From Cryobacterium sp. CG_9.6 (GTDB lineage: Bacteria > Actinomycetota > Actinomycetes > Actinomycetales > Microbacteriaceae), in the NCBI RefSeq assembly GCF_029893365.1, contig NZ_JARXUZ010000001.1, forward strand, positions 372,001 to 436,000: DNA of 64,000 bases. The letters are read 5' to 3'. A program made the position numbers and the translations under genes. This document shows positions 1 to 29,425 of this stretch, one piece after another (the first letter of the stretch is position 1; every line of letters starts with the position of its first letter). Below the pieces are notes generated by a model. The model saw only the letters and a list, made by a program, of their open reading frames with translations, was not told the origin of the DNA and did no database searches.

Positions 1-294
1 GTCGAGCTCGACGACTTCGAAGCTCTGCGCCGGGACACCGCCGCAACGATCCTCGACGTACGCAACCCCGGCGAGGTCGAGCAGGGCGCGATCCCGGGCT
101 CGCTGCGCATTCCCTTGGCCGAGCTGAGCCAGCGCCACGCCGAAGTGCCCGCCGGACCCGTGCTCATCCACTGTGCCAGCGGCTGGCGTTCGAGCGTCGC
201 CGCGAGTGCACTGCGGAATCTGGGCCATTCGGACGTCACCGACCTCATTGGCGGCTACAACGCATGGGCCGCCCAATACGCGGTGAAAGCCTGA
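1..294 (+). CDS. Rhodanese-domain protein, C-terminal part (cut by window edge)
   Basis: The frame is open from the first base and ends in TGA at 292-294, leaving 97 residues of a rhodanese domain. The segment ILDVRNPGEVEQG is the usual rhodanese start, and HCASGWRS carries the active-site Cys in a six-residue CxSGxRS-type loop. It ends with GGYNAWAAQ, the normal terminus of the fold. Rhodaneses carry persulfide sulfur on this Cys. The missing N-terminus could be another rhodanese domain or a metallo-beta-lactamase-fold persulfide dioxygenase; both fusions are common and the window cannot decide. It lies upstream of a second rhodanese and a CstR-type repressor, consistent with sulfide or persulfide handling. 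Confidence 0.85.
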   Translation, partial: VELDDFEALRRDTAATILDVRNPGEVEQGAIPGSLRIPLAELSQRHAEVPAGPVLIHCASGWRSSVAASALRNLGHSDVTDLIGGYNAWAAQYAVKA

Positions 295-357
295 TAGAAA
301 AGACGCCGCCGCCGAACACTTAACCAACGCTGGCTTCACGGCAGACACGATTGTCAG

Positions 358-380
358 AGGCCTGCCCCAGGGGCAGGCCT
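358..380. terminator. GC-rich palindrome after the first rhodanese
   Basis: AGGCCTGCCCC at 358-368 and GGGGCAGGCCT at 370-380 form a perfect 11-bp inverted repeat. There is no T-run, so it may be a weak or Rho-assisted terminator, or a processing hairpin. Confidence 0.4.
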
Positions 381-522
381 CCGGGCTGCCCGGCATTGCT
401 CCGCTCCCGCACCAAACTGAAACGGATCCACTATCTCTGACACCACGCACACCGTCAACCCCTCCCCAGCACCAATTGGGGCAGACGAATTCCATCAGTG
501 GGTTCTCCATCATGACGACCTG

Positions 523-1035
523 ATGATCATCGATGTGAGGGACGGTTCGGAGTTTGAAACCCGGCATATCCGGGGTTCGTATCACGTGCCGCTCCACCTG
601 CTCAAAGAACACACGGAAGAGTTCGCGGCGCAGATGGCCCCCCGGGTGGTGCTGGTGTGCCAGTCGGGTCGACGCGCGGAAGAAGCGCGAAAGAATCTTG
701 ACGCAGCCGGCCTGAACGGTGCTCGGGTATTGACCGGTGGTGTGGCGGGCTATGCCGCCGCCGGCGGCGATATCACCAGCGGTCGCTCCACGTGGGCCAT
801 GGATCGACAGGTACGCATGACGGCCGGATGCCTGGTGTTGGCGAGCGTGCTGGCGGGGAGGTTCATCCATCCGCAGTTCCGTCTTCTCGCCGGCGTCATC
901 AGCGCCGGTCTCACGGTGTCGGCCGCCACCAACAGTTGCACGCTGGGGCGAATTCTGTCGTGGATGCCCTGGAACCGCCCGGTTTCCGAACCCACGAAGA
1001 GTGACATCCTCGCGCAGCTGGCGCCGCACGCATGA
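523..1035 (+). CDS. Rhodanese with YgaP-like (DUF2892) membrane tail
   Basis: Residues 1-80 form a rhodanese domain (IIDVRDGSEFETRHIRGS, then VCQSGRR with the catalytic Cys). The rest holds two hydrophobic helices ending in ILSWMPWNRP, as in the E. coli YgaP family of membrane-anchored rhodaneses. The ATG at 523 falls inside the first beta strand. The frame is open upstream to a TGA at 418-420 and would encode IGADEFHQWVLHHDDL, the expected missing N-terminus, but no ATG, GTG or TTG exists there, only ATT, ATC and CTG. The true start is therefore unclear. It overlaps the next gene by ATGA, indicating translational coupling with the TauE/SafE exporter. A role in delivering or detoxifying sulfane sulfur at the membrane is inferred. 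Confidence 0.82.
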   Translation: MIIDVRDGSEFETRHIRGSYHVPLHLLKEHTEEFAAQMAPRVVLVCQSGRRAEEARKNLDAAGLNGARVLTGGVAGYAAAGGDITSGRSTWAMDRQVRMTAGCLVLASVLAGRFIHPQFRLLAGVISAGLTVSAATNSCTLGRILSWMPWNRPVSEPTKSDILAQLAPHA

Positions 1036-1796
1036 TCGTGGCCGCGCTGCTTCTGGGAGTGATCGTGGGCGCGCTGCTCGGCCTGGTCGGCGGGGGCGGG
1101 TCAATCCTGGCCGTTCCGGCCTTGGTCTACGGTGTCGGGTTACCCCTCGAGGAGGCGATACCAACCTCGCTGATCGTCGTGGGAGCGGCGTCGGCGGTCG
1201 CCGTGCTTCCGCGGCTGCGCACCGGTGTGAACTGGCGTCTGGCCGGCATCATCGGCGCCGCCGGCATTCCTACCGCCTACCTCGGCACCCTCGTAAACCG
1301 ACTGGTTGACCCTCAGCTTCTGCTCGGCGCTTTTAGCGTGATCATGGTCATCGCCGGCGTGCGAATGTTCTTTGCCACCCCCGCCGCAACCGGCCCCTGT
1401 GCGCTGCCCGGCGGCGGAACCCGGTGGCGCAGTTGTCTGCCCCGTGCGCTGGCAACGGGCGCCGTGGTCGGGTTCCTGACTGGGCTGCTCGGCGTCGGCG
1501 GCGGGTTCCTGATCGTTCCGGCACTGGCCCTCGTGCTCGGACTCCCCATGGGCGTCACGATCGGCACGTCCCTCGTGATCATCGTCATCAATTCGGTCGC
1601 CGGCTTCAGCGCCCACCTGAGCGACGTGCAGATCGACTGGGCCGTCACCGGCGCCTTCGCGGGCACCGCTATGCTGGCATCCCTAATCGCGGGCAGACTC
1701 AGCCGAAGACTCCCCGACCGCGTTCTCAAAACAAGCTTCGCGATCCTTGTGCTCTGCATCGCCGTGTACGTCGCGATTCGCGCCGTCGCCGGCTAG
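1032..1796 (+). CDS. TauE/SafE family sulfite/sulfur-anion exporter
   Basis: The 254-residue product has about eight hydrophobic segments and the internal duplication of TauE/SafE permeases: GLVGGGGSILAVPAL near residue 17 and GLLGVGGGFLIVPAL near residue 155. These glycine-rich repeats are diagnostic. Members export sulfite, sulfoacetate or related anions. The ATG overlaps the stop of the upstream rhodanese (ATGA), so the two are probably made together. The gene converges with the CstR-like repressor, 15 bases away. Rhodanese, exporter and CstR-type repressor together match known persulfide-responsive cst-type clusters; the substrate is inferred. Confidence 0.88.
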   Translation: MIVAALLLGVIVGALLGLVGGGGSILAVPALVYGVGLPLEEAIPTSLIVVGAASAVAVLPRLRTGVNWRLAGIIGAAGIPTAYLGTLVNRLVDPQLLLGAFSVIMVIAGVRMFFATPAATGPCALPGGGTRWRSCLPRALATGAVVGFLTGLLGVGGGFLIVPALALVLGLPMGVTIGTSLVIIVINSVAGFSAHLSDVQIDWAVTGAFAGTAMLASLIAGRLSRRLPDRVLKTSFAILVLCIAVYVAIRAVAG

Positions 1797-1811
1797 CTCT
1801 CGCGAATGGGG

Positions 1812-2102
1812 TCAGGCGAGGGACAGGAAAAGCTTTTCAAGCTCATTGACGCTGAGCTGCTTGGTTCCTCCATCCGCGCCGTTATCGATGAGGCACTCCT
1901 TCATCGCCGACGAGATGATCGTGAACCCTGCCCGGTCAATGGCACTCGAGACAGCAGCCAGCTGGGTGACCACGGCACGACAATCAGCGCCGGACTCAAC
2001 GGCTGTGATGACGGCGCCGAGTTGCCCCTGCGCGCGCTTGAGTCGATTGAGGGTCTTGCGCAGGTCGTCGCTGGAGTGGGTCGCGGGTTCGGTGATCCCC
2101 AT
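1812..2102 (-). CDS. cstR: CstR-type persulfide-sensing repressor (CsoR/RcnR family)
   Basis: The 96-residue all-helical protein belongs to the CsoR/RcnR family (DLRKTLNRLKRAQGQL near residues 13-28). Cys41 and Cys70 are 29 residues apart, the spacing of the paired thiols in CsoR and CstR. Copper sensors have a His four residues before the second Cys; here that position is Ala66. The His-less pair points to a CstR-like protein that forms di- or trisulfide links with persulfides rather than binding Cu(I). A perfect operator of the family sits at 2157-2174, between this gene and the divergent membrane-protein genes. Surrounding rhodaneses support the assignment. The start ATG at 2102 gives the normal family length. 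Confidence 0.85.
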   Translation of the reverse strand: MGITEPATHSSDDLRKTLNRLKRAQGQLGAVITAVESGADCRAVVTQLAAVSSAIDRAGFTIISSAMKECLIDNGADGGTKQLSVNELEKLFLSLA

Positions 2103-2156
2103 GAGGGTGTGCTCCTGTTCGTAAGCGGATGCGAGGCTGGTTTTGTCTAAGACCAG

Positions 2157-2174
2157 GATACCCCTTAGGGTATC
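2157..2174. promoter_or_regulatory. CsoR/CstR operator
   Basis: GATACCC at 2157-2163 and GGGTATC at 2168-2174 form a perfect inverted repeat around CTTA, the GATACCC-N4-GGGTATC layout typical of CsoR/CstR operators. It lies in the divergent region between cstR and the membrane gene at 2234. On the minus strand it sits between a possible TTGAAT and TATCCT, so the bound repressor would block its own promoter. Confidence 0.8.
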
Positions 2175-2233
2175 AGTATATTCAAATATGGCAGCAAGCG
2201 TTTCGCGATGAAAAGTAAATGAGGGCTATTCGA

Positions 2234-2794
2234 ATGCGTGACCAGCGCACCAGCAGGGACGAATCATCACGGCGTGCCCCTTGGCGCGGCAAGCTGGCCG
2301 GGCTCGGCGGGGACCTGCGTCGCTGGCCCTCTCGCCGCTGGTGGGTTGCCCTGGCGACGGCATTGTTTACGGTGGTCTTCATTGCCATTCCGACGGACTT
2401 GATTGACACGCCATTCTTTTCGCGACAGATCCCGCCGACCGCCTGGTCGTGGCCGGTGCTCACCCTCAGCGCGGTCTTGACGGGCATGGTCACTGCCACC
2501 TATGTGGCGCACCCGGAAGGCGCCCTGCCCAGTAGGGCGGCCGGACGATTGGGGATGGCCGGTTGGCTGGTGACGTTCTTCGCGGTGGGATGCCCCGTCT
2601 GCAACAAACTGGTTCTCCTCGCTCTCGGCACAACCGGAGCGATGCAATTCTTCGAGCCGGTCCAGTCGTATCTGGCCGCCGCGTCGATCGTCTTGCTCGG
2701 CTGGGCTCTCTATGCGCGCATGACTCGAGAAAATTCTTGCGGTCTTCCCGCTCGGACCACTGCCGCGACGGAAGTCCTTGATCGTGTTCTCTGA
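2234..2794 (+). CDS. Membrane protein with GCPVCNK motif
   Basis: I do not recognise a characterised family. The product has about four membrane segments after an Arg-rich N-terminus. The motif AVGCPVCNKLV lies in the third hydrophobic segment, so a CxxC pair is buried near the membrane surface and could be redox- or metal-active. I chose the ATG at 2234 over the one at 2219 because GAGGG ends eight bases before it. The gene is first in the transcript leaving the CstR operator, so it is probably persulfide-induced. The next gene is a diverged paralogue: both share an RRW start, a TYVAHPEG or SYVETPIG element and an LLGWAL or LLIWAL last helix. Transport or thiol chemistry is only a guess. Confidence 0.72.
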   Translation: MRDQRTSRDESSRRAPWRGKLAGLGGDLRRWPSRRWWVALATALFTVVFIAIPTDLIDTPFFSRQIPPTAWSWPVLTLSAVLTGMVTATYVAHPEGALPSRAAGRLGMAGWLVTFFAVGCPVCNKLVLLALGTTGAMQFFEPVQSYLAAASIVLLGWALYARMTRENSCGLPARTTAATEVLDRVL

Positions 2795-3317
2795 CCTACA
2801 AACTTGGTCGACTCGACGCTGGATAATCACGGCCGCCGCAGCCGCAGCCGCGTTCATGGCTTTTGTAACCGGCTACGCGCCCCGGGCGGGCGACGCAGAC
2901 GGCGCCCTGTGGTGGACGGTCGCGGCCACCGCGCTCGGAGCGAGCTTGATCGGCTTGATCGTTGCCAGTTATGTCGAAACCCCCATCGGCGCCGACGCAA
3001 CTCTCTGCGACACACGGTGGCCAGCTCTGGGTCTGATCGCGCTGTATCTGACCACCGAAGTCCGCTCCCTCGACCCGATAGTGAGCGGTGCTGCGCGCCC
3101 GGCCCTGGCCGCCGCCGCCCTCGCCCTATTGATCTGGGCCCTGCGCGAAAGACTGGTCAGCGAACGCCGAGCCACCACCCGCCGCGAATCGTCAGAGTCC
3201 GCTGAGGGTGAGGTCTGCACTACCTGCATGCCCTTGTTCCCGCGCTCCCGGAAAGTCGGTCCCAGGCCGATCACACTGCCACCCACTCCACGCACCGGTC
3301 AGGATACCCAGCCATGA
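2778..3317 (+). CDS. Membrane protein, diverged tandem paralogue of the preceding gene
   Basis: This 179-residue membrane protein begins with TTG at 2778 (or GTG at 2784) and overlaps the previous stop by 17 bases, so translation is probably coupled. It repeats its neighbour's plan: TRRW before helix 1, IVASYVETPIGAD after helix 2, and LLIWALRERLV as last helix. The segment carrying GCPVCNK in the neighbour is shortened and has no Cys pair. A separate CTTC appears in the hydrophilic tail near residue 146. It may have lost the original activity or serve as a partner subunit. No known family was recognised. Confidence 0.65.
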   Translation: MIVFSDLQTWSTRRWIITAAAAAAAFMAFVTGYAPRAGDADGALWWTVAATALGASLIGLIVASYVETPIGADATLCDTRWPALGLIALYLTTEVRSLDPIVSGAARPALAAAALALLIWALRERLVSERRATTRRESSESAEGEVCTTCMPLFPRSRKVGPRPITLPPTPRTGQDTQP

Positions 3318-3568
3318 AGAAAACACTCACCGGCATCACAATCGCCGTGGCGGCACTGCTCAGCATGGTCGCCTGCGCGAGCCCCGCGCCTTCGCCCTCC
3401 ATCGCTGTCACCTCCAGTACGGTCGTCGTCGATGTGCGCACCGCTCCAGAGTATGTCGGTGGACACCTTCAGGACGCCGTCAATATTGACGTGCAATCCC
3501 CGGACTTTCCGCAACCGGCATCGGGCGCTTCGGATGGCTGCGCCCGTGGAATTAATTCCGCGATGTGA
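3314..3568 (+). pseudogene. Truncated rhodanese lipoprotein
   Basis: The N-terminus is a lipoprotein signal (MKKTLTGITIAVAALLSMVAC, lipobox Cys at residue 21), followed by the first half of a rhodanese domain (VVVDVRTAPEYVGGHLQDAVNIDV). After SPDF the frame loses resemblance to the family and stops at residue 84, before the catalytic CxxGxR loop should appear. Another frame (RNRHRALRM) may continue the domain briefly, suggesting a frameshift followed by decay. It would be an inactive secreted stub. The ATG overlaps the end of the upstream membrane gene, so it was probably the last gene of the CstR-controlled operon. Confidence 0.7.
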
Positions 3569-3647
3569 TGGAAAAGGGATCTGGCACGACCTCCGAGTCC
3601 CGCGCCAACAATGCGCATTAGGAATTACGTGAACTACCCGCAGTTCG

Positions 3648-3692
3648 ACCCCCTCACATCCCAGTGTTTTCAACGGATGGAGGGGGTTTTTT
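3648..3692 (+). terminator. Rho-independent terminator of the sulfur operon
   Basis: ACCCCCTCACATCC (from 3648) pairs with GGATGGAGGGGGT (3675-3687) with one bulge, followed by six T. A second hairpin, ATGTGGG/CCCACAT, follows at 3694-3720. Confidence 0.75.
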
Positions 3693-3719
3693 CATGTGGG
3701 AATGCTGGGTTTGCCCACA

Positions 3720-3933
3720 TTGTGTCCACATTTGAAATACTGGCGGTCTGATTCAACCCTTCAGCCAAACGATCAACCGTTGATGGCTTCAGTGGTACCG
3801 CCTCAAGCGCGATCTGTGCCAGATCATCAAGCGGTGATCCAAAACGGGCCAAGTCCCAATCGATGACCCCGGTGAGGTGGAATCCATCGTGAAGCGTGTT
3901 CCAAGGCCCGAGGTCTCCGTGGTTCACGAGCAT
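3720..3933 (-). pseudogene. Aminoglycoside phosphotransferase (APH) family fragment
   Basis: Read from 3933 downwards, the frame gives VNHGDLGPWNTL and VIDWDLARFGSPLDDLAQ. These match the catalytic HGDxxxxN loop and the metal-binding IDWD motif of APH/choline-kinase-fold phosphotransferases. The N-terminal ATP-binding lobe is missing: a TGA sits 11 codons upstream, after which similarity is lost, and the C-terminus fades into the terminator region near 3720. It is a remnant. The flanking stretch up to 4133 has no recognisable gene. Confidence 0.65.
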
Positions 3934-4133
3934 GCTGGGTCCGGCTGCCTCGGGTCCTCAAAGAAACCTGGTGCCAGGTGGGAGCACAAACCCCAGTTGC
4001 CAAACCTATCGAATGCGGGAACCTAGGCCGGCGGGGACAGCCGTTCGGTAAGTCCACTGCAGTCTCGGTGGAGATTCGGTGAGCGGATCCAGTGGCTCGC
4101 TTGTGGGTGACCCCGCACCAGTAGACTCGGCCC

Positions 4134-4280
4134 ATGTTTCAATACAATGCATTCGTGACGGTCTCTTTGATTGCGGCTCTAGCCGCCGTTGTCGTCCTGT
4201 TTTGGCTGGCAATCACAGCGATCCGGGCGCTCAACGTCTACATCGCAAAGAATCGCTCACCGCGCGCTGAGAAGGAGTAG
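4134..4280 (+). CDS. Small single-pass membrane protein (48 aa)
   Basis: The ATG at 4134 opens a 48-codon frame: a short polar N-terminus, one strong hydrophobic helix (VSLIAALAAVVVLFWLAI) and a basic tail ending NRSPRAEKE. The codon choice looks coding and the layout is that of a single-pass membrane peptide. I do not recognise the family. It lies just before the tRNA-Ser remnant and may be the last intact gene of the decayed segment. Confidence 0.5.
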   Translation: MFQYNAFVTVSLIAALAAVVVLFWLAITAIRALNVYIAKNRSPRAEKE

Positions 4281-4315
4281 ATGCTTTTTGCGTGCATGTG
4301 TGCGAATCGACAGGC

Positions 4316-4357
4316 TCTGAAGGGGACGGATCGTGGGTTCAAATTCCACCGTCTTCG
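4316..4357 (+). pseudogene. tRNA-Ser remnant (possible attachment-site scar)
   Basis: TCTGAAGGGGACGG at 4316-4329 resembles the D-loop to anticodon-stem part of actinobacterial tRNA-Ser. It is followed almost directly by a T-arm (GTGGG, TTCAAAT, TCCAC at 4333-4349), a 3' acceptor strand CGTCTTC and discriminator G at 4357. The 5' acceptor GAAGACG and the anticodon and variable arms are absent, so it cannot be a working tRNA. Such 3' fragments commonly mark ends of integrated elements; here that is inference. Confidence 0.5.
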
Positions 4358-4367
4358 CACAGCATCA

Positions 4368-4408
4368 CCCCTCACCTCCCCGTGTTTGCGGGAGATGAGG
4401 GGTTTTTT
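4368..4408. terminator. Rho-independent terminator
   Basis: CCCCTCACCTCCC (4368-4380) pairs with GGGAGATGAGGGG (4390-4402), followed by six T. It separates the tRNA remnant from the convergent minus-strand gene at 4430-4804. Confidence 0.8.
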
Positions 4409-4429
4409 AGGTGGGGGAGCGGTGCTGCT

Positions 4430-4804
4430 TTAGCCAGCGATGAGGGCGATGAGCAGGGCCACGTATACGACGATGAACACGGTCGGCGTCACGAATCGCA
4501 CCACGTTCACCCAGGGCGCCGCAGACACAATGCGTCGTGTCACGGCCGAGGTGCTGCCCAGTGCGCGCAGATCGGCGGTAACCGCCAGAGCCTCATTGGC
4601 GACATTGATCTGCACCAGTGCGCCGAGAATGCCAGAAGCCAGCAGTATTCCGGCCGCAGCGACCCGCACGCTGGGGTCTGTTGCGGCCAAGCCGAAGGTG
4701 AGGAAGCCCACCAGTGCGGCGAGCAGTAAAGTGGGGGCGACCTGAGACACGATGAGGTGCCAACGGCTCTTGATCCACAGGTTGACGAGCTCGGATTCAG
4801 TCAT
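4430..4804 (-). CDS. Small hypothetical membrane protein
   Basis: The start ATG at 4804 (MTESELVNLW) is preceded by GGGAG at a suitable distance; an upstream in-frame ATG lacks this. The 124-residue product has about four hydrophobic helices, with a loop ADLRALGSTSAVTRRIVSA between the second and third. No family was recognised. It is the last gene of the minus-strand group containing the heliorhodopsin, 102 bases downstream of it, so co-transcription is possible but unproven. Confidence 0.7.
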   Translation of the reverse strand: MTESELVNLWIKSRWHLIVSQVAPTLLLAALVGFLTFGLAATDPSVRVAAAGILLASGILGALVQINVANEALAVTADLRALGSTSAVTRRIVSAAPWVNVVRFVTPTVFIVVYVALLIALIAG

Positions 4805-4906
4805 GCGGTGCTCCCGTTCGGTCGTCGCGGACGGACGACAATACATCTATTCTCCTGCCTTCACACCCGTACAAAATGCCGACACCACTCACCTAGGACA
4901 AGTGAC

Positions 4907-5677
4907 TTACGTGACGCCGCCCGTTGTCGAAAGGATGCCCGCAACGACCTGCCACGCGAACGCCGCTTTGGTGACGAGACTGAGCAGAAGATAGCCACGC
5001 TCCTCGGTCGCGTACGTGCGCCCCGTGGGGATTTCCCGGAACCCGAGCCACTGGTTGACCCCGAAGGCAAAGAACAGCAGAAGCAGAGTGACGGTCAGCA
5101 GGCGTATCCAGACGGGCTGGTCGTATCCGCTTGTTGCTCCCGGAGCCAGAACGTGCAGGGCAATCACGCCCCACGGCACAATCCCCACGATGCTGCCGAC
5201 AATGAACGGCCGCAGCGTGCGGGCCGGAGTGCCGATCCGCTCCTGCAGCCACAGCAGAATGATCAGGGCCGACTGTACCGAGTAGATGAGGACGAGCGTG
5301 CCGGCATTGGTGATTCCGTTCAGCTGGGCGATGAGGAAGATCATGATCGACGAGCTGAGCGAGTACTCGATCCAGCGGATGGGGCTGCAGCGCTGAACGA
5401 TGGAGCGTTGATAGCGCGCGGCGAGCAGCGGTGACGCGATGAGGAGGTGGGTCACGGCCGGAAGCAGGAGAACGATCACCGCAGCGACGCCGATATTGAC
5501 GGAGCCAATTAGCAGGCTCTCGGGCTCTAGGCCTGTGTCCGGCGCCCCGGTCGGATACTCGACGGTCACCGGAAGAAGCAGGTGCAGAGCCTGGGTCACG
5601 ATCACGGCGACAACAATCGCCTGCACCAGGTGCAGCAGACCCATGATCAGGTTCAGGGTGCGAAGGTTCACGGGCAT
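4907..5677 (-). CDS. Heliorhodopsin
   Basis: The 256-residue, seven-helix protein carries heliorhodopsin hallmarks. RWIEYSLSSS near residues 101-110 has counterion Glu104, and SLVTKAAFAWQ near 233-243 has Lys237, the expected retinal Schiff-base lysine in helix 7. Heliorhodopsins are retinal proteins with inverted topology (N-terminus inside), slow photocycles and no ion pumping in most cases studied. The start ATG shares its A with the stop of the upstream DUF2256/DUF3253 gene (TGATG), so the frame and start are well defined; longer upstream starts lie inside that gene. The window has no carotenoid or retinal biosynthesis gene, so chromophore supply must come from elsewhere. Function here is unknown. 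Confidence 0.92.
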   Translation of the reverse strand: MPVNLRTLNLIMGLLHLVQAIVVAVIVTQALHLLLPVTVEYPTGAPDTGLEPESLLIGSVNIGVAAVIVLLLPAVTHLLIASPLLAARYQRSIVQRCSPIRWIEYSLSSSIMIFLIAQLNGITNAGTLVLIYSVQSALIILLWLQERIGTPARTLRPFIVGSIVGIVPWGVIALHVLAPGATSGYDQPVWIRLLTVTLLLLFFAFGVNQWLGFREIPTGRTYATEERGYLLLSLVTKAAFAWQVVAGILSTTGGVT

Positions 5678-6084
5678 CACTTTCGGGGTCGGCGCAGGCG
5701 GATCGGGCCCTTCGCCGTGGACGGGTCCACGACCGTGCCACCCTGCACAATCTGCAGTTGCCCGGCCGCAACCATGCGCCGAGCAGCTCGTCGAACCGGC
5801 TCCATCAGCTCCTGCCACGCCTCGCCGCCCACCATCCGGGCCACGTCGGCCGCATCAATCGATGAGTGCGCGGGTGTGGTGACGAGAAGACGAGCGATGG
5901 TGCTCTCCAGCTCCCGGTCGGTATCGTTCACACCGTGACGGCGACAGGCATCCGAGCAGTACTTCACGTTCGCCCAGTCGCGTGCCCATGCCGCCCGCCA
6001 GGTGATGCGCCGACCACACGACACGCAGGTGCGCTCCACGGGAGGGGCCTGCTCAAGGTCTGATGCGCGCTGTCGGTGTGCCAC
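5677..6084 (-). CDS. DUF2256-DUF3253 zinc-cluster protein coupled to heliorhodopsin
   Basis: From GTG at 6084 the product is 135 residues. Residues 17-50 match DUF2256: Cys20-x2-Cys23 and Cys43-x3-Cys47, with the ITWRAAWARDW spacer, a probable zinc site. Residues 50-130 match DUF3253, a small winged-helix-like domain (SIDAADVARMVGG, then PVRRAARRMVAAGQLQIVQGG). The fusion is common in actinobacteria and has no settled function. Its stop overlaps the heliorhodopsin start by one base, tying expression of the two together. A cytoplasmic partner or DNA-binding output for the photoreceptor is an attractive inference, nothing more. Longer starts up to 6201 exist, but homology begins near 6084. Confidence 0.85.
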   Translation of the reverse strand: MAHRQRASDLEQAPPVERTCVSCGRRITWRAAWARDWANVKYCSDACRRHGVNDTDRELESTIARLLVTTPAHSSIDAADVARMVGGEAWQELMEPVRRAARRMVAAGQLQIVQGGTVVDPSTAKGPIRLRRPRK

Positions 6085-6130
6085 GCTTCTATTCTGCTCC
6101 CACGACCTCGACGACGCGACTGGGGACGCT

Positions 6131-6409
6131 CTATTCGTCGAGGACCTGAATTCGGTGACGGTATTCCTCGGAGTCAAGCTCCCCTCGGGCGAAGCGCTCA
6201 TCCAGGAGCTGGCGTGCTGCGCTGCGTGCTGGCCGGTGCGACTCGACGGGGTACGACTCCACGGGCCGTTGACCGCCTGAATCCCGGTGCCCGTTACCCG
6301 GACTGAACGCCCGAACCGTCAGGATTGTCAGTAGCACCACGCCAGCGAGAAGGAGCAGCCCGATCGGCCACAGCCACCACATAAATCCCATGCCGTAATT
6401 TCCCCACAT
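6131..6409 (-). CDS. SHOCT-domain membrane protein
   Basis: AGGAGG lies five bases before the ATG at 6409 (two before the adjacent ATG at 6412). The product has a Trp- and Gly-rich start (MWGNYGMGFMWWLWPIG), one membrane helix and a C-terminal SHOCT domain (LLDERFARGELDSEEYRHRI), a short helical oligomerisation module. Such proteins are frequent in actinobacteria with no agreed function. It is 46 bases upstream of the DUF2256/DUF3253 gene on the same strand and is probably the first gene of the heliorhodopsin operon. Confidence 0.85.
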   Translation of the reverse strand: MWGNYGMGFMWWLWPIGLLLLAGVVLLTILTVRAFSPGNGHRDSGGQRPVESYPVESHRPARSAARQLLDERFARGELDSEEYRHRIQVLDE

Positions 6410-6592
6410 CATGGCCTCCTTCTCCATCTTTTGCGCACAGGTTACCCGCAAATCCCCGCCCGAGGTGAGATCTCGGCAAAACGACCGGCAAATTCGTGCT
6501 GATCGTCAGGATGCAGCAGATCATGAGTGGCAGGTCGTCTGCACCGCGGTTCGGCACCTAAAATTAGGGGTACACGAGGAGGTGGTGTTCCC

Positions 6593-7207
6593 ATGCGGCG
6601 AAGTCGATCGAGCCGCCGTGCCGGTGCGCAGGTTCAGGAATCGGGTGCCGATCTCGCCACCATCGAGCGGATGTCCGACGAGGGGCTCCTCATCGCCCTC
6701 TCCGCCGTGCGAATGGCCGTGAAAAACGACATCATCATCGGTGCGCTGCGGGACCACGCCGATTATGACCCTGCACGCTATGCGGAGACGGCGCGAAATG
6801 AGCTGAGTCTCCTGGCCCGCCAGAATGAGGAATACGCCGAACGTGTGGGGCGGCTCCGGAAAGACCTCAGCAAGAGCCACTGGGGCTTCGACCTCACGGA
6901 CGACCAGCGTGGGGACCTCGCCCAGTTCGCTCTGCGCATGCAGGTGCACAATCGGCTGACCGTCGCCCTCGACGCCGAGGCGGCTGCTGACGACCGTGTG
7001 GCCCAGCTCGTGGACCGCGCCCAGCGGGCGGCGAGCGAGGAGATTCGTGACGCGGTGTCAACGCGGTTGATCTCGCTCGCCATCGATCCACATGCGGCGG
7101 ACTATGCCGAAAAACGGGCGGATCGACTCGAGATGTTCTTGCTGGTGAACCTCGCCCTGCTGAAGGCGTCCCGCGCCGAGGCCACTCCGGGCGACAGCGA
7201 CTACTGA
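6593..7207 (+). CDS. Hypothetical helical protein
   Basis: The ATG at 6593 follows a strong GAGGAGGTG. The 204-residue product has a basic N-terminus (MRRSRSSRRAG) and is otherwise almost entirely amphipathic helix, rich in Ala, Glu and Arg, with no membrane segment or Cys cluster. Segments such as RNELSLLARQNEEYAERVGRL could form coiled coils. I do not recognise a characterised family; proteins like it occur in related actinobacteria as conserved hypotheticals. It is divergent from the SHOCT gene, so the two promoters share the region 6410-6575. Confidence 0.75.
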   Translation: MRRSRSSRRAGAQVQESGADLATIERMSDEGLLIALSAVRMAVKNDIIIGALRDHADYDPARYAETARNELSLLARQNEEYAERVGRLRKDLSKSHWGFDLTDDQRGDLAQFALRMQVHNRLTVALDAEAAADDRVAQLVDRAQRAASEEIRDAVSTRLISLAIDPHAADYAEKRADRLEMFLLVNLALLKASRAEATPGDSDY

Positions 7208-7347
7208 CCGGTATCCCCGCTGGCCAGGCGGGGCGAATCTGGTCAGTGCCAGATGCTGACCTTTTTTGGAACAGTGGAGTACGGTCGCCTTACACGGAGA
7301 TTGCGATCTCCGATTCACCGCAGGAATTCTTGAGAGAGGTATGACAG

Positions 7348-7455
7348 ATGTCTGACACACCGCACCCGAAGCCGCACGATCCCCGGCCCCATGCGCCTCA
7401 AGCGCCTGCCCCCACACCTGCTCCCGATGCGCCCGAACAGGACACGCCGCAGTAG
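7348..7455 (+). CDS. Pro-rich small peptide (35 aa)
   Basis: The ATG at 7348 has GAGAGAGGT about seven bases upstream and opens a 35-codon frame of low complexity: Pro, Ala and His dominate (SDTPHPKPHDPRPHAPQAPAP), and it ends in TAG at 7453-7455. It would be a disordered cytoplasmic peptide. The ribosome-binding site is the main evidence. No homologue is recognised. Confidence 0.4.
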   Translation: MSDTPHPKPHDPRPHAPQAPAPTPAPDAPEQDTPQ

Positions 7456-7506
7456 TCGGCCCACGACGGCGGGCAGGGCCTCGGCCGTGCCCGCGTCCGC
7501 GCCGGC

Positions 7507-9156
7507 CTACAAAGTGGGCCAGAACTCCTGCCACACCTGTCGCTGTTCACCACGAGGGTCACATTCCACCCGGTCTACCTCATCAAAGATGAGCGTCTGG
7601 CGATCCTGCTCGGTGTAGTTCGGCCAGCTCGCCTCCACCACTCCCGTACAGGCGAAGTGCAACCAGTGGCGACGCATCCGCTCACCGGCACTGATAAAGG
7701 GTTTGCGGCCACCGAACGCGGTCACGGACCGTGCAAAAAGGGTATCTAGGTCGTTGAAGAGCGCAAAAAGTTCGATGCCGTGGGTAGCGCCCAGGCCAAC
7801 CACATGCATGAGTCGCGGCGCAAGATCGAAGCGATAGAAGTGCACGGGAGCAACGCGCGAGTGCAATCCCCCCACCGTGACGCTCGGAAACCAGAAAGCG
7901 AAATCACCACCGAAATCGCTCGCGGCGTGTTTCGTGGGCAGCCCCGGGTACGCTGCGCGCATGGCGTCGTGAGTGCCTTCGGGGGCGCGTTCGAACAGCG
8001 CCTGAATTCGTTGGGGCGACTGCGGCAGAATATCGACACGACGCCCGAACGCCGAGCCCTCACGGTAGTTCGTGCCGATGATGAGCGGCACGTGGTGTGT
8101 GTGGCCGCGTCGAAACGCGTCGACCGGGTGTTCGGGGAGCAAATCGCCGTCCACAACCGGGGCGAGACAGAATGTGCCGGGCTGCGCATCGGGCGTGCGC
8201 ACCTGAACGGCGAGGGCCGCCAGCATGAGCTGCCCGGCATCCGCTTCGATGAGCAGCTGTGCCGCATCACTGGTCTCACCGACGGCATCCGGTGTGATCG
8301 CCCGCAACTCGTTCACCACCTCCTCGGCCCAGCCCCGGGTGAGCTCGGGCGCGTACGCGGCTCCCGGTGGGGGACTCTGCGCAATGACGCGCGCGAACAG
8401 CCCCCGCGCCGCCGGGGTGGCCATCAACGTAAGGGCCGCGTTGCCCCCGGCCGACTCCCCAAACACCGTCACGTTGTTGGGGTTTCCTCCGAACGAGCGG
8501 ATGTTGCTGCGCACCCACTCGAGGGCGGCCAGCTGATCGCGGAGCCCCAGATTATTCTCGATCGGTCGTTCCGGCGTGGAGTAGCCCGAGAAGTCCAGAT
8601 ACCCCAGAGCACCGAGTCGATAATTGAAATTCACGTAGACCACGCGCCCGGTCCGCACAAAACTCGGCCCCTGTTGGGGAAAATCCTGAGCAGATCCGAT
8701 GCTGTAACCGCCGCCATGAATAAACACCATCACCGGCAGGCTCAGTCGGGTGCGCCGCCCCACGGTGGGCGCGAGCACATTGATGGTGAGACAGTCCTCA
8801 CTTGCCAGCTGTCGAGCAATCTTCGAGCGGAGGGAATTGCGCGGGATCTGTGATGCCACATCCCTGTGGCGACTGGCATCCCGAACACCGCACCACGGAA
8901 TCACGCTCTGTGGTGCTCGAAAGCGCAGCGGGCCCACAGGCGGCGCCGCGTAGGGGATGCCGCGCCAAGCCACGATCGAACCGTCCCGAACCCCACGCAC
9001 AGTGCCGCCCGTGACCTGAACGTCCAGGGCAGTACGCGGTGAATCAGCGAGATCAGGGATGCCTGACGACGTGGTCGATGATGACCGGGACGGACGGAGT
9101 GAACGCGCCGTGTCGTGGCGAGGAAGCCCGGTGGTGACTGAGAGGTGAGTGAACAT
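7507..9156 (-). CDS. Carboxylesterase type B
   Basis: Starting at ATG 9156 the protein has 549 residues, the usual length of type-B carboxylesterases. It shows the oxyanion-hole segment FIHGGGY, the nucleophile elbow GESAGG with catalytic Ser, and the catalytic His in GATHGIEL. The early element GIPYAAPPVGPLRF and the SEDCLTINV stretch are also family signatures. No signal peptide is evident, so it is probably cytoplasmic and hydrolyses carboxylic esters. The substrate cannot be read from sequence. The gene stands alone, 53 bases upstream of the next minus-strand gene. Confidence 0.9.
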   Translation of the reverse strand: MFTHLSVTTGLPRHDTARSLRPSRSSSTTSSGIPDLADSPRTALDVQVTGGTVRGVRDGSIVAWRGIPYAAPPVGPLRFRAPQSVIPWCGVRDASRHRDVASQIPRNSLRSKIARQLASEDCLTINVLAPTVGRRTRLSLPVMVFIHGGGYSIGSAQDFPQQGPSFVRTGRVVYVNFNYRLGALGYLDFSGYSTPERPIENNLGLRDQLAALEWVRSNIRSFGGNPNNVTVFGESAGGNAALTLMATPAARGLFARVIAQSPPPGAAYAPELTRGWAEEVVNELRAITPDAVGETSDAAQLLIEADAGQLMLAALAVQVRTPDAQPGTFCLAPVVDGDLLPEHPVDAFRRGHTHHVPLIIGTNYREGSAFGRRVDILPQSPQRIQALFERAPEGTHDAMRAAYPGLPTKHAASDFGGDFAFWFPSVTVGGLHSRVAPVHFYRFDLAPRLMHVVGLGATHGIELFALFNDLDTLFARSVTAFGGRKPFISAGERMRRHWLHFACTGVVEASWPNYTEQDRQTLIFDEVDRVECDPRGEQRQVWQEFWPTL

Positions 9157-9208
9157 GTGTCGCGCCCCTTCCGGACGACGCTCGGGTCTGGAGCTAGCCC
9201 GGGTATTT

Positions 9209-9949
9209 CTACCTGTCTTGCGGTTCTGCGCTGGCCTCGAAGCCGAAGCGTTCGCCGCGGTCCCAACTCTGGCGCAGGTTTCCCCAGGCTGGAATGCCGC
9301 CATTGGCCTGCAGAATCGATGCCAGATGCATGAGATTCCAGCTCATGAAGGTGGTGTTGCGATTGGTGAAATCATTCTGGGGGCCGCCAGAACCCGGGTC
9401 GAGATAGCTGGGGCCGGGCCCGATCTCACCCAGCCATCCCGCATCCGCTGCTGGGGGGATGGTGTAGCCAATGTGCTGCAAACTGTAAAGCAGGTTGGAG
9501 CTGCAATGCTTGACGCCGTCTTCGTTGCCGGTGAGAATAGCGCCACCCACCTTGCCGTAGAACACGTACTGGCCTTTTTCGTTGAACATGCCAGACATTG
9601 CATACAAACGTTCAACGATGCGTTTGGTGACGGAACCATTGTCGCCGAGCCAAATGGGGCCGGCGAGAACGAGAATATCGGCCGCGCGAACAGTCTCGAA
9701 CACGGCAGGCCAGGCATCGCTTGCCCAGCCGTGTTCGGTCATGTCGGGGAACACGCCGGTGGCGATGTCGTGGTCGATGGCGCGAATCACATCCACGTGA
9801 ACGGCCTGACCGCGCATGATGTGTGCACTCAGGTCAATAATGCCCTCCGTGTTGCTCACCTCGGGGCTGCGCTTGAGCGTGCAGTTGATAAACACCGCGC
9901 GCAGTGAGGAGTAGTCGAACGACGTTTCAACGTGAACGGACGGGCCCAT
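9209..9949 (-). CDS. Flavodoxin family / NADPH-dependent FMN reductase-like protein
   Basis: The 246-residue protein has the flavodoxin-like fold: RAVFINCTLKRSPEVSNTEG as beta-1 and phosphate loop (near residues 17-36), ILVLAGPIWLGDNGSVTKR as the FMN-edge loop, and YGKVGGAILTGNEDGVKH later. These match the NADPH-dependent FMN reductase/WrbA-like superfamily. The C-terminal 60 residues extend beyond the core. It probably binds FMN and reduces quinones or other small acceptors. It lies directly upstream of the carboxylesterase on the same strand (52-base gap), so a two-gene operon is plausible. Confidence 0.82.
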   Translation of the reverse strand: MGPSVHVETSFDYSSLRAVFINCTLKRSPEVSNTEGIIDLSAHIMRGQAVHVDVIRAIDHDIATGVFPDMTEHGWASDAWPAVFETVRAADILVLAGPIWLGDNGSVTKRIVERLYAMSGMFNEKGQYVFYGKVGGAILTGNEDGVKHCSSNLLYSLQHIGYTIPPAADAGWLGEIGPGPSYLDPGSGGPQNDFTNRNTTFMSWNLMHLASILQANGGIPAWGNLRQSWDRGERFGFEASAEPQDR

Positions 9950-10149
9950 ATGGTCAGTAAAGCACCGGTTTCAGGAGCTAGCTAGGGCCAGCACGGCTGA
10001 TTCTGAGACCGGCACGGCCCTGCTGCCACGACCGTCTTGGACAGGCGGGGGTCGTCACGCCTGGCCGCGGTGTGCAGTGAGCGCGACCGGGTTCAAAATG
10101 CGGTATAGTTTTCAAGTTGCCTCCGAGCGTTTCGGTCGGAAGTAACCGG

Positions 10150-10222
10150 GCGCCCGTAGCTCAGCGGATAGAGCAATTGACTACGGATCAATAGGTCGGG
10201 GGTTCAAATCCCTCCGGGCGCA
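10150..10222 (+). tRNA. tRNA-Arg(ACG)
   Basis: The cloverleaf is complete: acceptor GCGCCCG/CGGGCGC, anticodon loop CTACGGA with anticodon ACG, and T-arm GGGGG TTCAAAT CCCTC with one G-T closing pair. CCA is not encoded. A TATAGT box lies at 10104-10109. A34 would be the target of the TadA encoded 3 kb downstream. Confidence 0.95.
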
Positions 10223-10227
10223 CAGCT

Positions 10228-10262
10228 AAAAACCCCGTAATCCTTGTGATTGCGGGGTTTTT
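10228..10262 (+). terminator. Terminator after tRNA-Arg
   Basis: AAAAACCCCGTAATC pairs with GATTGCGGGGTTTTT around CTTGT, with one mismatch, giving a strong intrinsic terminator. Confidence 0.85.
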
Positions 10263-10548
10263 GTTTTGTCGTGGACGGCCTCGCTCGACCGCTCACCTGA
10301 GAAGTTTGTGAACAATCTTGACCAATCTTGACCAAACGGGCAAATGGGGGTCATGTATAGATAGCATTGCCCTAAGTGAGAAATACTTACCTTTACCTTC
10401 ACGGCACCGCCGCCATGACATGAGGTCGAAGTTTCTCGCCGGGCCTTGTTCGGAAGTCCGGTGAGGAAGGCATTCCTGCGAGGGACTGCCTCGGTGGGGC
10501 GAGGGGTAGGGCCTTCGCCCCACCGCCATCCCGTTTGGCGCTGAGCGG
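10263..10548. other. Intergenic region without a gene
   Basis: No convincing coding frame is seen. It holds a short tandem repeat (CAATCTTGAC twice, about 10312-10331) and a GC-rich hairpin (GGTGGGGCG at 10493 pairing with CGCCCCACC ending at 10524), which could end transcription of the minus-strand MarR gene. Confidence 0.5.
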
Positions 10549-11043
10549 CTAATCCGGTGAGCGCGTGTCTCGCGTGCGTAGCCGATCACACAGGGCCGTG
10601 AGCTCGTGGAGTTCGTCGATGTTCAGCGAATCGCCGATACGTTCCGTGATGGTGTTCATGTGGGCAACGGCCACGCGGCGAAAGACTGCGAGACCCGTTG
10701 TGGTGAGTTCCACGATGGCCCCCCGGCCGTCGTTCGGGTCGGCGAGCTTGCAGACGTAGCCCTTGGAGACCAGGCGGTCCACCAGTCGGCTGACGCTGGG
10801 CTGGGTGAGCAGCACGTGACTGTTGAGCTCACGTAAGCGGATGCGCCGATCGGGCTCTCGAGACAGATTAAACATCACGTCGTACTCATTGAAGGAAATG
10901 TCCCGGGAGGGAAAGCCGGCCGCGAGGCTGCGCATGATGGCCACTTGGGCACGAAAAAGGGACTCCCACGCCGCAACGGCAACGTTCCGATCGACCACCC
11001 TGACTCCTTGCGCTGCTCGTGACGCCCCTAACCCCTGGGGCAT
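10549..11043 (-). CDS. MarR family transcriptional regulator
   Basis: The ATG at 11043 follows AGAGGTGAT and gives 164 residues, a normal MarR length. The winged helix is clear: IRLRELNSHVLLTQPSVSRLVDRLVSKGYV is the helix-turn-helix and ADPNDGRGAIVELT the wing with its Asp-x-Arg element. Flanking helices form the dimer. Ligand and targets are unknown. The stretch 11044-11234 is AT-rich near TTATATATT and may hold its promoter. No obvious palindromic operator was found. Confidence 0.9.
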   Translation of the reverse strand: MPQGLGASRAAQGVRVVDRNVAVAAWESLFRAQVAIMRSLAAGFPSRDISFNEYDVMFNLSREPDRRIRLRELNSHVLLTQPSVSRLVDRLVSKGYVCKLADPNDGRGAIVELTTTGLAVFRRVAVAHMNTITERIGDSLNIDELHELTALCDRLRTRDTRSPD

Positions 11044-11234
11044 GATCACCTCTAAGGATAGGGACTTCGCGGCGATCATCGCGCATCTGCTCGGCTCGGA
11101 GCCAACTCGCAGGAGAAAAAGTGTCACTCAACTAGCGTCCGTTACTCATTCGTTATATATTCGTAGTGCGTCAACCGTTTGCTGTGGCGGAAGACGTGAA
11201 ATGTGATTGCAGGACACTCTTGGTGCAAGGGAAC

Positions 11235-11265
11235 AGGGCCGGTCGTAGAGTCTACGACCGGCCCT
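11235..11265. terminator. Hairpin terminator
   Basis: AGGGCCGGTCGTA (11235-11247) and TACGACCGGCCCT (11253-11265) form a perfect 13-bp stem with a 5-base loop. It lies just past the stop of the minus-strand winged-helix gene. Confidence 0.7.
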
Positions 11266-11290
11266 CACCATGTGTGGCGTGATGTACGAG

Positions 11291-11974
11291 TTAGAAGCGG
11301 TCGGGACTCGGGGTCGTCGCCTGTCGAATCGACACGTCGGCGTGACGGTCGAAGCGGTATCCCACTCCACGCACCGTGCGCACGATGTCCTCGTAGCGAC
11401 CGAGCTTTGCACGTAGGCGCCGCACGTGCACGTCAATGGTGCGCTCGTTGGGGGTGTCGTCCTCATCGCTGGCATCCCAGAGCGAGGAAATGATCTCTGC
11501 ACGATCCACGGTGCGTCCCTCGCGCAGAACCAGGTACTGCAACAGTTCAAACTCTTTGTAGGTGAGGCTGGCCGTCTCGTTGTCGAGGATCACGCGCTTG
11601 CGTGAGATATCGACGACGACACCGCTGTGGGCACGGTCGAGTTCTTCGGTTTCGGTGCGGTGTTCCGCCAGCGCGGACGGATCCTGCAGAGCGAGACGAA
11701 CAACGTCAACATCGCGTCCACCGGAGTTCTCGGGGGCCAAGGCCACGGCCGCGTAGGTTTCGGCCGACGGTGCCAGGTCGTTTGTGAGGGCTTTGAGCGC
11801 CTCAACAATGCGGTGCAGGCTCGTGCCGGCCGCCGCGGCCTTGGCCTCATCGATGCCAACGTAGAGCACGAAGCCGCGGGCTTCGGTGCCGCTCGGAACG
11901 GCGCGAATGCGGGGGGCCGGCTGGTCGACGATCTTCAGTGCGGGACGACCTGAGTGGATGTGGGCGAGAGACAT
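11291..11974 (-). CDS. Winged-helix regulator (OmpR/PhoB-type C-terminal domain, no receiver)
   Basis: The ATG at 11974 follows AAGGAG by six bases. The 227-residue protein ends in an OmpR/PhoB-type winged helix (residues about 130-215: LTYKEFELLQYLVLREGRTVDRAEII, then NERTIDVHVRRLRAKL and VRTVRGVGYRF). The N-terminal 120 residues are not a phospho-receiver: no acidic pocket or conserved Lys is seen. It contains FVLYVGIDEAKAAAAGTSLHRIVEALKAL, resembling a small alpha/beta domain of unknown ligand. Upstream lies a 185-base leader and a Cys-rich small peptide, suggesting control by attenuation. No sensor kinase is nearby. Confidence 0.85.
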   Translation of the reverse strand: MSLAHIHSGRPALKIVDQPAPRIRAVPSGTEARGFVLYVGIDEAKAAAAGTSLHRIVEALKALTNDLAPSAETYAAVALAPENSGGRDVDVVRLALQDPSALAEHRTETEELDRAHSGVVVDISRKRVILDNETASLTYKEFELLQYLVLREGRTVDRAEIISSLWDASDEDDTPNERTIDVHVRRLRAKLGRYEDIVRTVRGVGYRFDRHADVSIRQATTPSPDRF

Positions 11975-12158
11975 GGGGAACTCCTTATGAGAAAAACGTG
12001 GGTGAACCCGCAGCAATGCTCATGGGTTCGCGTATGAGGCACACGTGCCTGGTGTCGAACGCTGTCAGGAAGCGTTCGGGAGAGCAGTTCGTCAGTCACC
12101 GGGGGCGATATATCCCGGTGCGCGGGGACGGAGCTGAACTCTCAGCGAGGGCCGGGCG

Positions 12159-29077: not shown

Positions 29078-29425
29078 TTAGGCGGGGTGGGCGATTTCAC
29101 CCTCCAGCGAAGGCGGCACAATTACCAGGGGACGCGGCTCGGCCACGATCTGCAGGCCGCCGGAGGAGTTTGCCGTGGCCATGAGCGCTTCGATCCATTC
29201 GCGGTTCAGGCTCGGTGACCGGCTCCCGAAATACTTGTAGGCGATCGGAATGCCGGGGTGTATCCAGATGGCGCTGCGACCGTCACCCGATTTGGGGTCG
29301 TCACGCCAGCTGAAGTAGAACGACTCGCCGCGACGCAATTTCGCACCGATAACCACCTGAATGTGGGCCAGAACACGATCATCAAAGTCCGCCGTCAGCG
29401 AGGAATTATAGGTCAATTTTCCCAT
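29078..29425 (-). CDS. Hypothetical GIPI-motif protein (115 aa), conserved in Microbacteriaceae-type genomes
   Basis: The 115-residue protein starts GKLTYNSSLTADFDDRVLAH and contains FSWRDDPKSGDGRSAIWIHPGIPI. Proteins of this kind are widespread in Microbacteriaceae and are sometimes mislabelled as related to ATP-dependent DNA ligases; no ligase motif exists here. GGGAATGG precedes the ATG at 29425. It follows the sigma factor gene by 50 bases and precedes its own distant paralogue, suggesting a stress-induced operon. Function unknown. Confidence 0.78.
   Translation of the reverse strand: MGKLTYNSSLTADFDDRVLAHIQVVIGAKLRRGESFYFSWRDDPKSGDGRSAIWIHPGIPIAYKYFGSRSPSLNREWIEALMATANSSGGLQIVAEPRPLVIVPPSLEGEIAHPA

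What the first reader, a model, noticed from the sequence alone, without database searches (positions are those of the whole stretch)
4907..6409. Heliorhodopsin in an operon with a SHOCT protein and a DUF2256/DUF3253 zinc protein
Lys237 and Glu104 identify a heliorhodopsin, a photoreceptor family without an established cellular role. Its start shares a base with the stop of the DUF2256/DUF3253 gene, and a SHOCT membrane protein lies 46 bases before that. A fixed operon would point to a light-dependent signalling unit: membrane sensor, zinc-cluster output and oligomerising membrane partner.
Basis: partly seen in the sequence, partly recalled or inferred. Interest (0 to 1): 0.78.

Follow-up and report, generated by a model that had tools for sequence, protein, structure and literature searches.

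The report
Heliorhodopsin paired with zinc winged-helix protein
A light-sensing membrane protein gene in a cold-living bacterium overlaps the gene for a small zinc-finger/winged-helix protein, and the same pair turns up in a few relatives in otherwise different surroundings, so the small protein is a testable candidate partner for a photoreceptor whose job is mostly unknown.

Summary
In detail: a heliorhodopsin (HeR; Lys237, Glu104) at 4907-5677, minus strand, shares one base with the stop of a DUF2256-DUF3253 gene (D). The SHOCT-like gene 46 bp upstream is below Pfam's cut-off and was not found beside the pair in relatives, so a three-gene operon is not supported. The D-HeR pair is: it recurs in Cryobacterium algoritolerans and, with a 4-bp overlap, in a distant Microbacteriaceae genome, with no other shared neighbour found. 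It is rare (2 of 97 HeR places in 398 family genomes; 0 of 102 fetched phylum loci). D usually lives without HeR, so it also has a HeR-independent role. Stand-alone DUF2256 sits beside photolyase/cryptochrome genes in 8 of 11 plasmid places opened, which suggests a light or UV-damage theme. Best guess: D is a cytoplasmic partner of this HeR subclade. By-product: 6 of 23 subclade proteins have Arg, Gln or Pro for the retinal lysine, and 20 of 20 fetched (of 28) low-scoring Microbacteriaceae homologues lack it. No expression or binding data. New variant of a known kind.

The parts
4907..5677 (-). heliorhodopsin gene (256 aa; Glu104, Lys237)
   Evidence: PF18761 208.6 bits, NF038020 214 bits; residues by alignment
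5677..6084 (-). DUF2256-DUF3253 gene (D, 135 aa): Cys4 TRASH-type finger (C20, C23, C43, C47) plus winged helix; stop TGA shares base 5677 with the HeR ATG
4967..4969 (-). codon of the Schiff-base Lys237
   Evidence: sequence; alignment
5366..5368 (-). codon of Glu104 (TM3 counterion position)
   Evidence: sequence; alignment
6131..6412 (-). small membrane protein with a sub-threshold SHOCT-like C-terminus; not part of the conserved pair
   Evidence: 22.9 bits against a cut-off of 27; no tblastn match at 1e-4 in the loci searched

Best explanation
The unit is two genes, D then HeR, with overlapping stop and start. Shown: HeR is a canonical-looking heliorhodopsin; D is a Cys4-finger plus winged-helix protein by sequence and model; the pair occurs in three different surroundings; between the window and C. 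algoritolerans both genes are under purifying selection. Inferred: the two genes are co-expressed and D is the cytoplasmic partner of this heliorhodopsin subclade. Retinal isomerisation changes HeR's cytoplasmic face, which binds or releases D, and D then acts on nucleic acid or on a nucleic-acid-bound partner in a UV/photo-oxidative damage response, the setting in which DUF2256 is found beside photolyases. D also works without HeR, so HeR would modulate an existing protein rather than own it.
For: Pair in the window (1-base overlap), C. algoritolerans L086 (159-bp gap; HeR 75%, D 81% identity) and G066/L066 (ATGA 4-bp overlap; HeR 38%, D 54%); no other shared gene found by tblastn of the window's flanking genes or by crude gene clusters (DNA comparison of the window with L086). 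dN/dS window-L086 (NG86): HeR 0.155/0.573, D 0.118/0.779. In C. breve the HeR-linked D is cut to about 12 codons, and the HeR there has Arg for Lys and a frame break. Own genome has a BCD (beta-carotene dioxygenase) gene; in C. algoritolerans BCD and lycopene cyclase follow HeR and a DPRP-type photolyase homologue lies at 9281-10675. Stand-alone DUF2256 beside photolyase/cryptochrome in 8 of 11 plasmid places opened (Pfam). In Microbacteriaceae, D directly precedes a DPRP gene in G042 (4-bp overlap) and G111 (59 bp between the matched domains), among the rows listed.
Against: Only 2 of 97 HeR places in 398 family genomes have a listed DUF3253 next door, and 0 of 102 phylum loci. DUF3253 occurs in 45 of 57 Cryobacterium genomes, in 41 of the 45 as a single match; only in the window genome and C. 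algoritolerans does it touch HeR, and there it is the only DUF3253, so it may simply do D's general job. D's downstream gene varies in other genera, with 4-bp overlaps to unrelated genes too (2'-5' RNA ligase type in L253, ZIP-like in L262). The gap in C. algoritolerans is 159 bp, so there is no translational coupling there. G066 keeps D although its HeR has Arg in place of Lys. No light, binding or expression data.
Confidence: 0.48

Rival explanations
1. Hitch-hiking: D is a general small zinc/winged-helix protein unrelated to light, and HeR was inserted behind it and uses its transcription and translation. The pair persists because a coupled start is convenient.
For: D is mostly HeR-free and mostly single copy; D overlaps unrelated downstream genes elsewhere; the gap in C. 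algoritolerans is 159 bp.
Against: The pair is kept down to 38% HeR identity with changed surroundings. DUF2256 has a photolyase-linked habit, so two light-related partners would be coincidence.
Confidence: 0.35
2. Retinal-free scaffold: in this subclade HeR serves D as a membrane anchor or sensor of something other than light, and retinal is dispensable.
For: Lys replaced in P0124 (R), P0125 (Q), P0129 (R), P0141-P0143 (P) and C. breve (R), with the Glu kept where it could be read; G066 has Arg and keeps D; 20 of 20 low-scoring homologues fetched (of 28 places) lack Lys.
Against: The window copy and C. algoritolerans keep Lys and Glu; BCD sits next to HeR in the latter; in C. breve, loss of Lys goes with loss of the HeR-linked D.
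Confidence: 0.12
3. A three-gene unit with the SHOCT-like membrane protein.
For: 46-bp spacing on the same strand.
Against: No SHOCT homologue by tblastn in L086, L087 or L066; sub-threshold domain match.
Confidence: 0.05

Closest known systems
Heliorhodopsin operons with a partner gene (TfHeR-photolyase PMC9769723, passages; AbHeR-glutamine synthetase PMC9529153, search listing only; OcHeR-ABC transporter and ten partner groups PMC11109279, passages; gene contexts PMC8612252, passages and section 7)
   Same: HeR gene tightly linked to a gene whose product may be modulated
   Different: D is not among the ten groups named in PMC11109279; neither DUF2256, DUF3253 nor SHOCT occurs in the main text of PMC11109279 or PMC8612252 (supplements not seen)
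CryoRhodopsin with putative cytoplasmic transducer DUF7882 (PMC12227055; abstract, passages and section 13)
   Same: Microbacteriaceae of cold habitats; small soluble protein gene next to or overlapping a rhodopsin gene
   Different: CryoR is a type-1 rhodopsin and DUF7882 is compared there with PH domains; here HeR and a zinc/winged-helix protein. The window genome also carries a type-1 rhodopsin with a DUF7882 gene in front
DUF2256 genes beside photolyase/cryptochrome genes (plasmid annotations)
   Same: the same TRASH-clan finger domain, in some cases overlapping the gene of a light-using enzyme
   Different: there stand-alone and paired with photolyases, not fused to DUF3253 and not with HeR
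Opsins without the retinal lysine, such as gluopsins (PMC9368030, search listing only)
   Same: opsin fold kept without the lysine
   Different: animal opsins; here heliorhodopsin homologues

Membership tests
Heliorhodopsin (PF18761 / NF038020) | profile match above curated cut-off | tested here: met
   208.6 against 26.7 and 214 against 100 bits
Heliorhodopsin (PF18761 / NF038020) | Schiff-base Lys in TM7 and Glu in TM3 | tested here: met
   K237 and E104
Heliorhodopsin (PF18761 / NF038020) | inverted topology and retinal binding | not testable with these tools
   needs biochemistry
DUF2256 (PF10013, TRASH clan) | profile match and four Cys | tested here: met
   54.8 against 25 bits; C20, C23, C43, C47 invariant in 24 sequences
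DUF2256 (PF10013, TRASH clan) | metal binding | not testable with these tools
   clan membership from one passage of PMC4047054
DUF3253 (PF11625) | profile match and winged-helix fold | tested here: met
SHOCT (PF09851) | profile match above cut-off | tested here: not met
   22.9 against 27 bits
Rhodopsin-transducer gene pair of the CryoR-DUF7882 kind | adjacent or overlapping small soluble protein gene | tested here: met
   overlap in the window and L066, 159-bp gap in L086
Rhodopsin-transducer gene pair of the CryoR-DUF7882 kind | partner present with all members of the rhodopsin group | tested here: inconclusive
   3 loci with D, 1 with D deleted (L087), two unverified metagenome pairs; contexts of the other clade members not readable
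Rhodopsin-transducer gene pair of the CryoR-DUF7882 kind | physical interaction | not testable with these tools
   only single-chain models are offered
HeR-photolyase operon | photolyase gene in the same operon | tested here: not met
   no match of six photolyase homologues to the window by tblastn at 1e-8; one about 3.5 kb past HeR in C. algoritolerans

The most novel reading that the evidence does not exclude
In Microbacteriaceae the heliorhodopsin scaffold has been uncoupled from retinal more than once (the Lys state changes at least 3 times on the tree; direction assumed, not inferred): Arg, Gln or Pro in the window's own subclade, Thr, Ser, Ala, Val or Pro in a larger group, with the counterion Glu mostly kept; and HeRs paired with D occur on both sides of that switch. 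HeR would then be a general membrane regulator of small cytoplasmic nucleic-acid-type proteins, with light as one optional input.
Probability: 0.25. Interest if true: 0.78.

Novelty: new variant of a known kind. Interest (0 to 1): 0.52.

Why it matters
What heliorhodopsins do is known for only a few. A small, soluble candidate partner encoded in overlap with HeR makes one of them directly testable in vitro. If D links HeR to the photolyase world, it would tie heliorhodopsins to UV-damage responses through a second protein family (DUF2256/DUF3253) that the held library hardly mentions (2 and 0 papers). Lysine-less heliorhodopsin homologues would question the habit of requiring the lysine in rhodopsin surveys (PMC9601134 did so; passages).

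Tried and rejected
Three-gene operon: rejected, no SHOCT homologue near D-HeR in the three relatives searched. A general actinobacterial D-HeR operon: rejected. Conserved neighbours of D in other genera: in 38 D loci, by eye from the printed rows, no gene cluster sat directly beside D in more than two loci outside Cryobacterium; the largest cluster (SDR type, 10 loci) lies at varying places. The gene finder is crude: its first version lost D in 23 loci. HeR and DUF3253 do not go together by genome: 27 of 80 HeR genomes have DUF3253 against 150 of 398 overall (hand count). Promoter and terminator scan: nothing. Rfam over window 1-12000: only the tRNA at 10150; the tRNA-like 3' end near 4340 is not called by ARAGORN either. 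The VIA-align rows cover almost only the winged helix (residues 52-135); the finger was barely tested, and families not listed are not excluded. Foldseek gave one match below 1e-3, 2ns0. Heliorhodopsin matches on plasmids: 2 records (Chloroflexota, Lactococcus), not opened. Paper searches: DUF2256 (2 papers, titled on small proteins and on plant DUF581), DUF3253 (0), COG4338/PF10013/PF11625 (8 papers, all by PF10013, listing only, most titles on Plasmodium and relatives, so probably gene-name look-alikes, one on Xanthomonas; none opened), heliorhodopsin with lysine phrases (36 papers with at least 2 terms, 20 listed, none titled for lysine-less heliorhodopsin), rhodopsin with Cryobacterium and glacier (5). 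The match lists were cut short by the tool, so adjacency counts from them are lower bounds. I considered that P0124, P0125 and P0129 lack D because no D protein listed shares their contig lengths; this is too weak and is not used as evidence. The second structure job was not used.

Full report
What is there. On the minus strand, HeR runs from ATG 5677 to stop 4907 and D from GTG 6084 to TGA 5679-5677; they share base 5677. HeR scores 208.6 bits to PF18761 and 214 to NF038020 and aligns over nearly its whole length to solved heliorhodopsins, with the TM3 Glu and the TM7 Lys in place. D carries DUF2256 and DUF3253 above cut-off. The SHOCT label of the third gene is below cut-off. The window lies in a genome of 3,539,656 bases in 2 contigs. 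Its genus is most likely Cryobacterium: handle G314, called same genus, coincides in contig length and position with C. cheniae TMT2-48-2.

How general is the pair. In 398 Microbacteriaceae genomes, 80 have a PF18761 match, at 97 places, and 150 have PF11625 (places counted by hand). Only two places, the window and G066, have both side by side among the rows listed; the PF11625 list was cut short. In 102 HeR loci fetched from the phylum sample (fragments of split genes were not fetched), none has DUF2256 or DUF3253 within about 1.5 kb (30 loci) or 2.5 kb (72 loci, some cut by contig ends). In GTDB genomes, one scan with the subclade alignment (two short peptide patterns) confirmed 18 loci, of which two belong to the close subclade: C. 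algoritolerans L086 and C. breve L087. L086 has D then HeR with a 159-bp gap; G066 (L066) has D then HeR with an ATGA overlap. Apart from D and HeR, no gene shared with the window was found in L086 or L066 by tblastn of nine neighbouring frames of the window, and no shared cluster by a crude gene finder. In C. breve only about 12 codons of the HeR-linked D remain before HeR, whose frame is broken near L087:5320 and whose Lys is Arg; that assembly is rated 83% complete, so the frame break may be a sequencing error, but the loss of most of D is not easily one. C. breve keeps a DUF3253 gene elsewhere (G404:C1:1339386).

The lysine. A tree of 66 heliorhodopsin homologues, built without the Lys columns, needs at least 3 changes of Lys state; the count does not tell the direction. 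The subclade of the window HeR (P0121-P0143, of which P0121 is the window itself) has Lys in 17 of 23; P0124 and P0129 have Arg, P0125 Gln, P0141-P0143 Pro. P0124, P0125, P0129 and C. breve form one supported branch (100/96). Among 28 low-scoring HeR places I fetched 20; none has Lys at the aligned column, and 17 of 20 keep the Glu. The alignment of the weakest (L083-L085) is uncertain. All 30 family loci that one search returned as loci (the best-scoring ones) and all 102 fetched phylum loci keep Lys (two gap entries from that set are extra fragments). So lysine loss here looks like a Microbacteriaceae matter within this sample.

Reading. The D-HeR pair looks like a small, real, lineage-restricted module. 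Its analogue in the same family is the CryoRhodopsin with an adjacent or overlapping small transducer gene (PMC12227055, abstract, passages and section 13); the window genome has such a pair too (DUF7882 at G000:C1:1990458, type-1 rhodopsin at 1990981; whether that rhodopsin has the CryoRhodopsin arginine was not checked). Taking together the winged helix, the Cys4 finger and the photolyase habit of DUF2256, I favour D as a cytoplasmic partner in a UV or photo-oxidative response modulated by HeR. HeR modulation of photolyase has been reported for Trichococcus (PMC9769723, start of the abstract and passages). The main counter-argument is that D is usually HeR-free and that in two Cryobacterium genomes the HeR-linked D is the only copy, so it may just be D doing its ordinary job with HeR behind it. 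G066, with D kept and Lys replaced by Arg, cuts against a strict light story; C. breve, with the linked D and Lys both gone, cuts for it.

Literature. I searched PMC open papers for heliorhodopsin (99 papers, 40 listed), DUF2256 (2), DUF3253 (0), heliorhodopsin with Cryobacterium (4) and heliorhodopsin with photolyase and operon (8). I did not open most of these. The two papers that hold DUF2256 are titled on other subjects, and the two HeR context papers do not name DUF2256, DUF3253 or SHOCT in their main text. Their supplementary tables were not available, so the pair may be listed there.

Noticed in passing
L067-L082, L089-L092, L095, L099 (Microbacteriaceae): Heliorhodopsin homologues without the Schiff-base lysine (T, S, A, V or P) and with the TM3 Glu kept; 20 of them form one supported group.
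   Followed up: partly
P0124, P0125, P0129, P0141-P0143, L087: Within the window HeR's own subclade, Lys is replaced by Arg, Gln or Pro in 6 of 23 proteins, plus C. breve.
   Followed up: partly
G000:C1:376931, 1174671, 1290214, 1990981, 3111154: The window genome has three heliorhodopsins and two type-1 rhodopsins; one of the latter follows a DUF7882 gene, as described for CryoRhodopsins.
   Followed up: partly
window 29138-29425 (-): A DUF7882 (CryoRhodopsin transducer family) match lies in the window (133.9 bits); its neighbours were not examined.
   Followed up: no
G193:C11, G314:C68, G403:C28, G420:C43, G423:C61, G432:C4 (Cryobacterium): A canonical-type HeR and the D gene lie about 7-16 kb apart on the same contig in six genomes of the genus, without being adjacent.
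   Followed up: no
L086:5788-10675: Behind HeR in C. algoritolerans: BCD (beta-carotene dioxygenase) and lycopene cyclase genes, then a DPRP photolyase homologue.
   Followed up: partly
L301-L303, L305, L306, L308, L311, L312: Stand-alone DUF2256 genes beside photolyase/cryptochrome genes on proteobacterial plasmids; L307 has separate adjacent DUF2256 and DUF3253 genes.
   Followed up: partly
L083, L100, L102 (L100 and L102 are Curtobacterium): Divergent HeR homologues without an aligned Lys lie near DPRP-type photolyase homologues.
   Followed up: no
L243 and L244:6539-7423 (Cryobacterium): Heliorhodopsin paralogues with Asp at the TM3 Glu position and Lys kept.
   Followed up: no
window 4325-4360: Sequence like the 3' end of a tRNA (ggttcaaattcc...), not called by ARAGORN or Rfam; possibly a tRNA remnant.
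   Followed up: partly
window 3670-3933 (-): Short frame matching only the end of the APH phosphotransferase profile (positions 170-228 of 239), perhaps a remnant.
   Followed up: no
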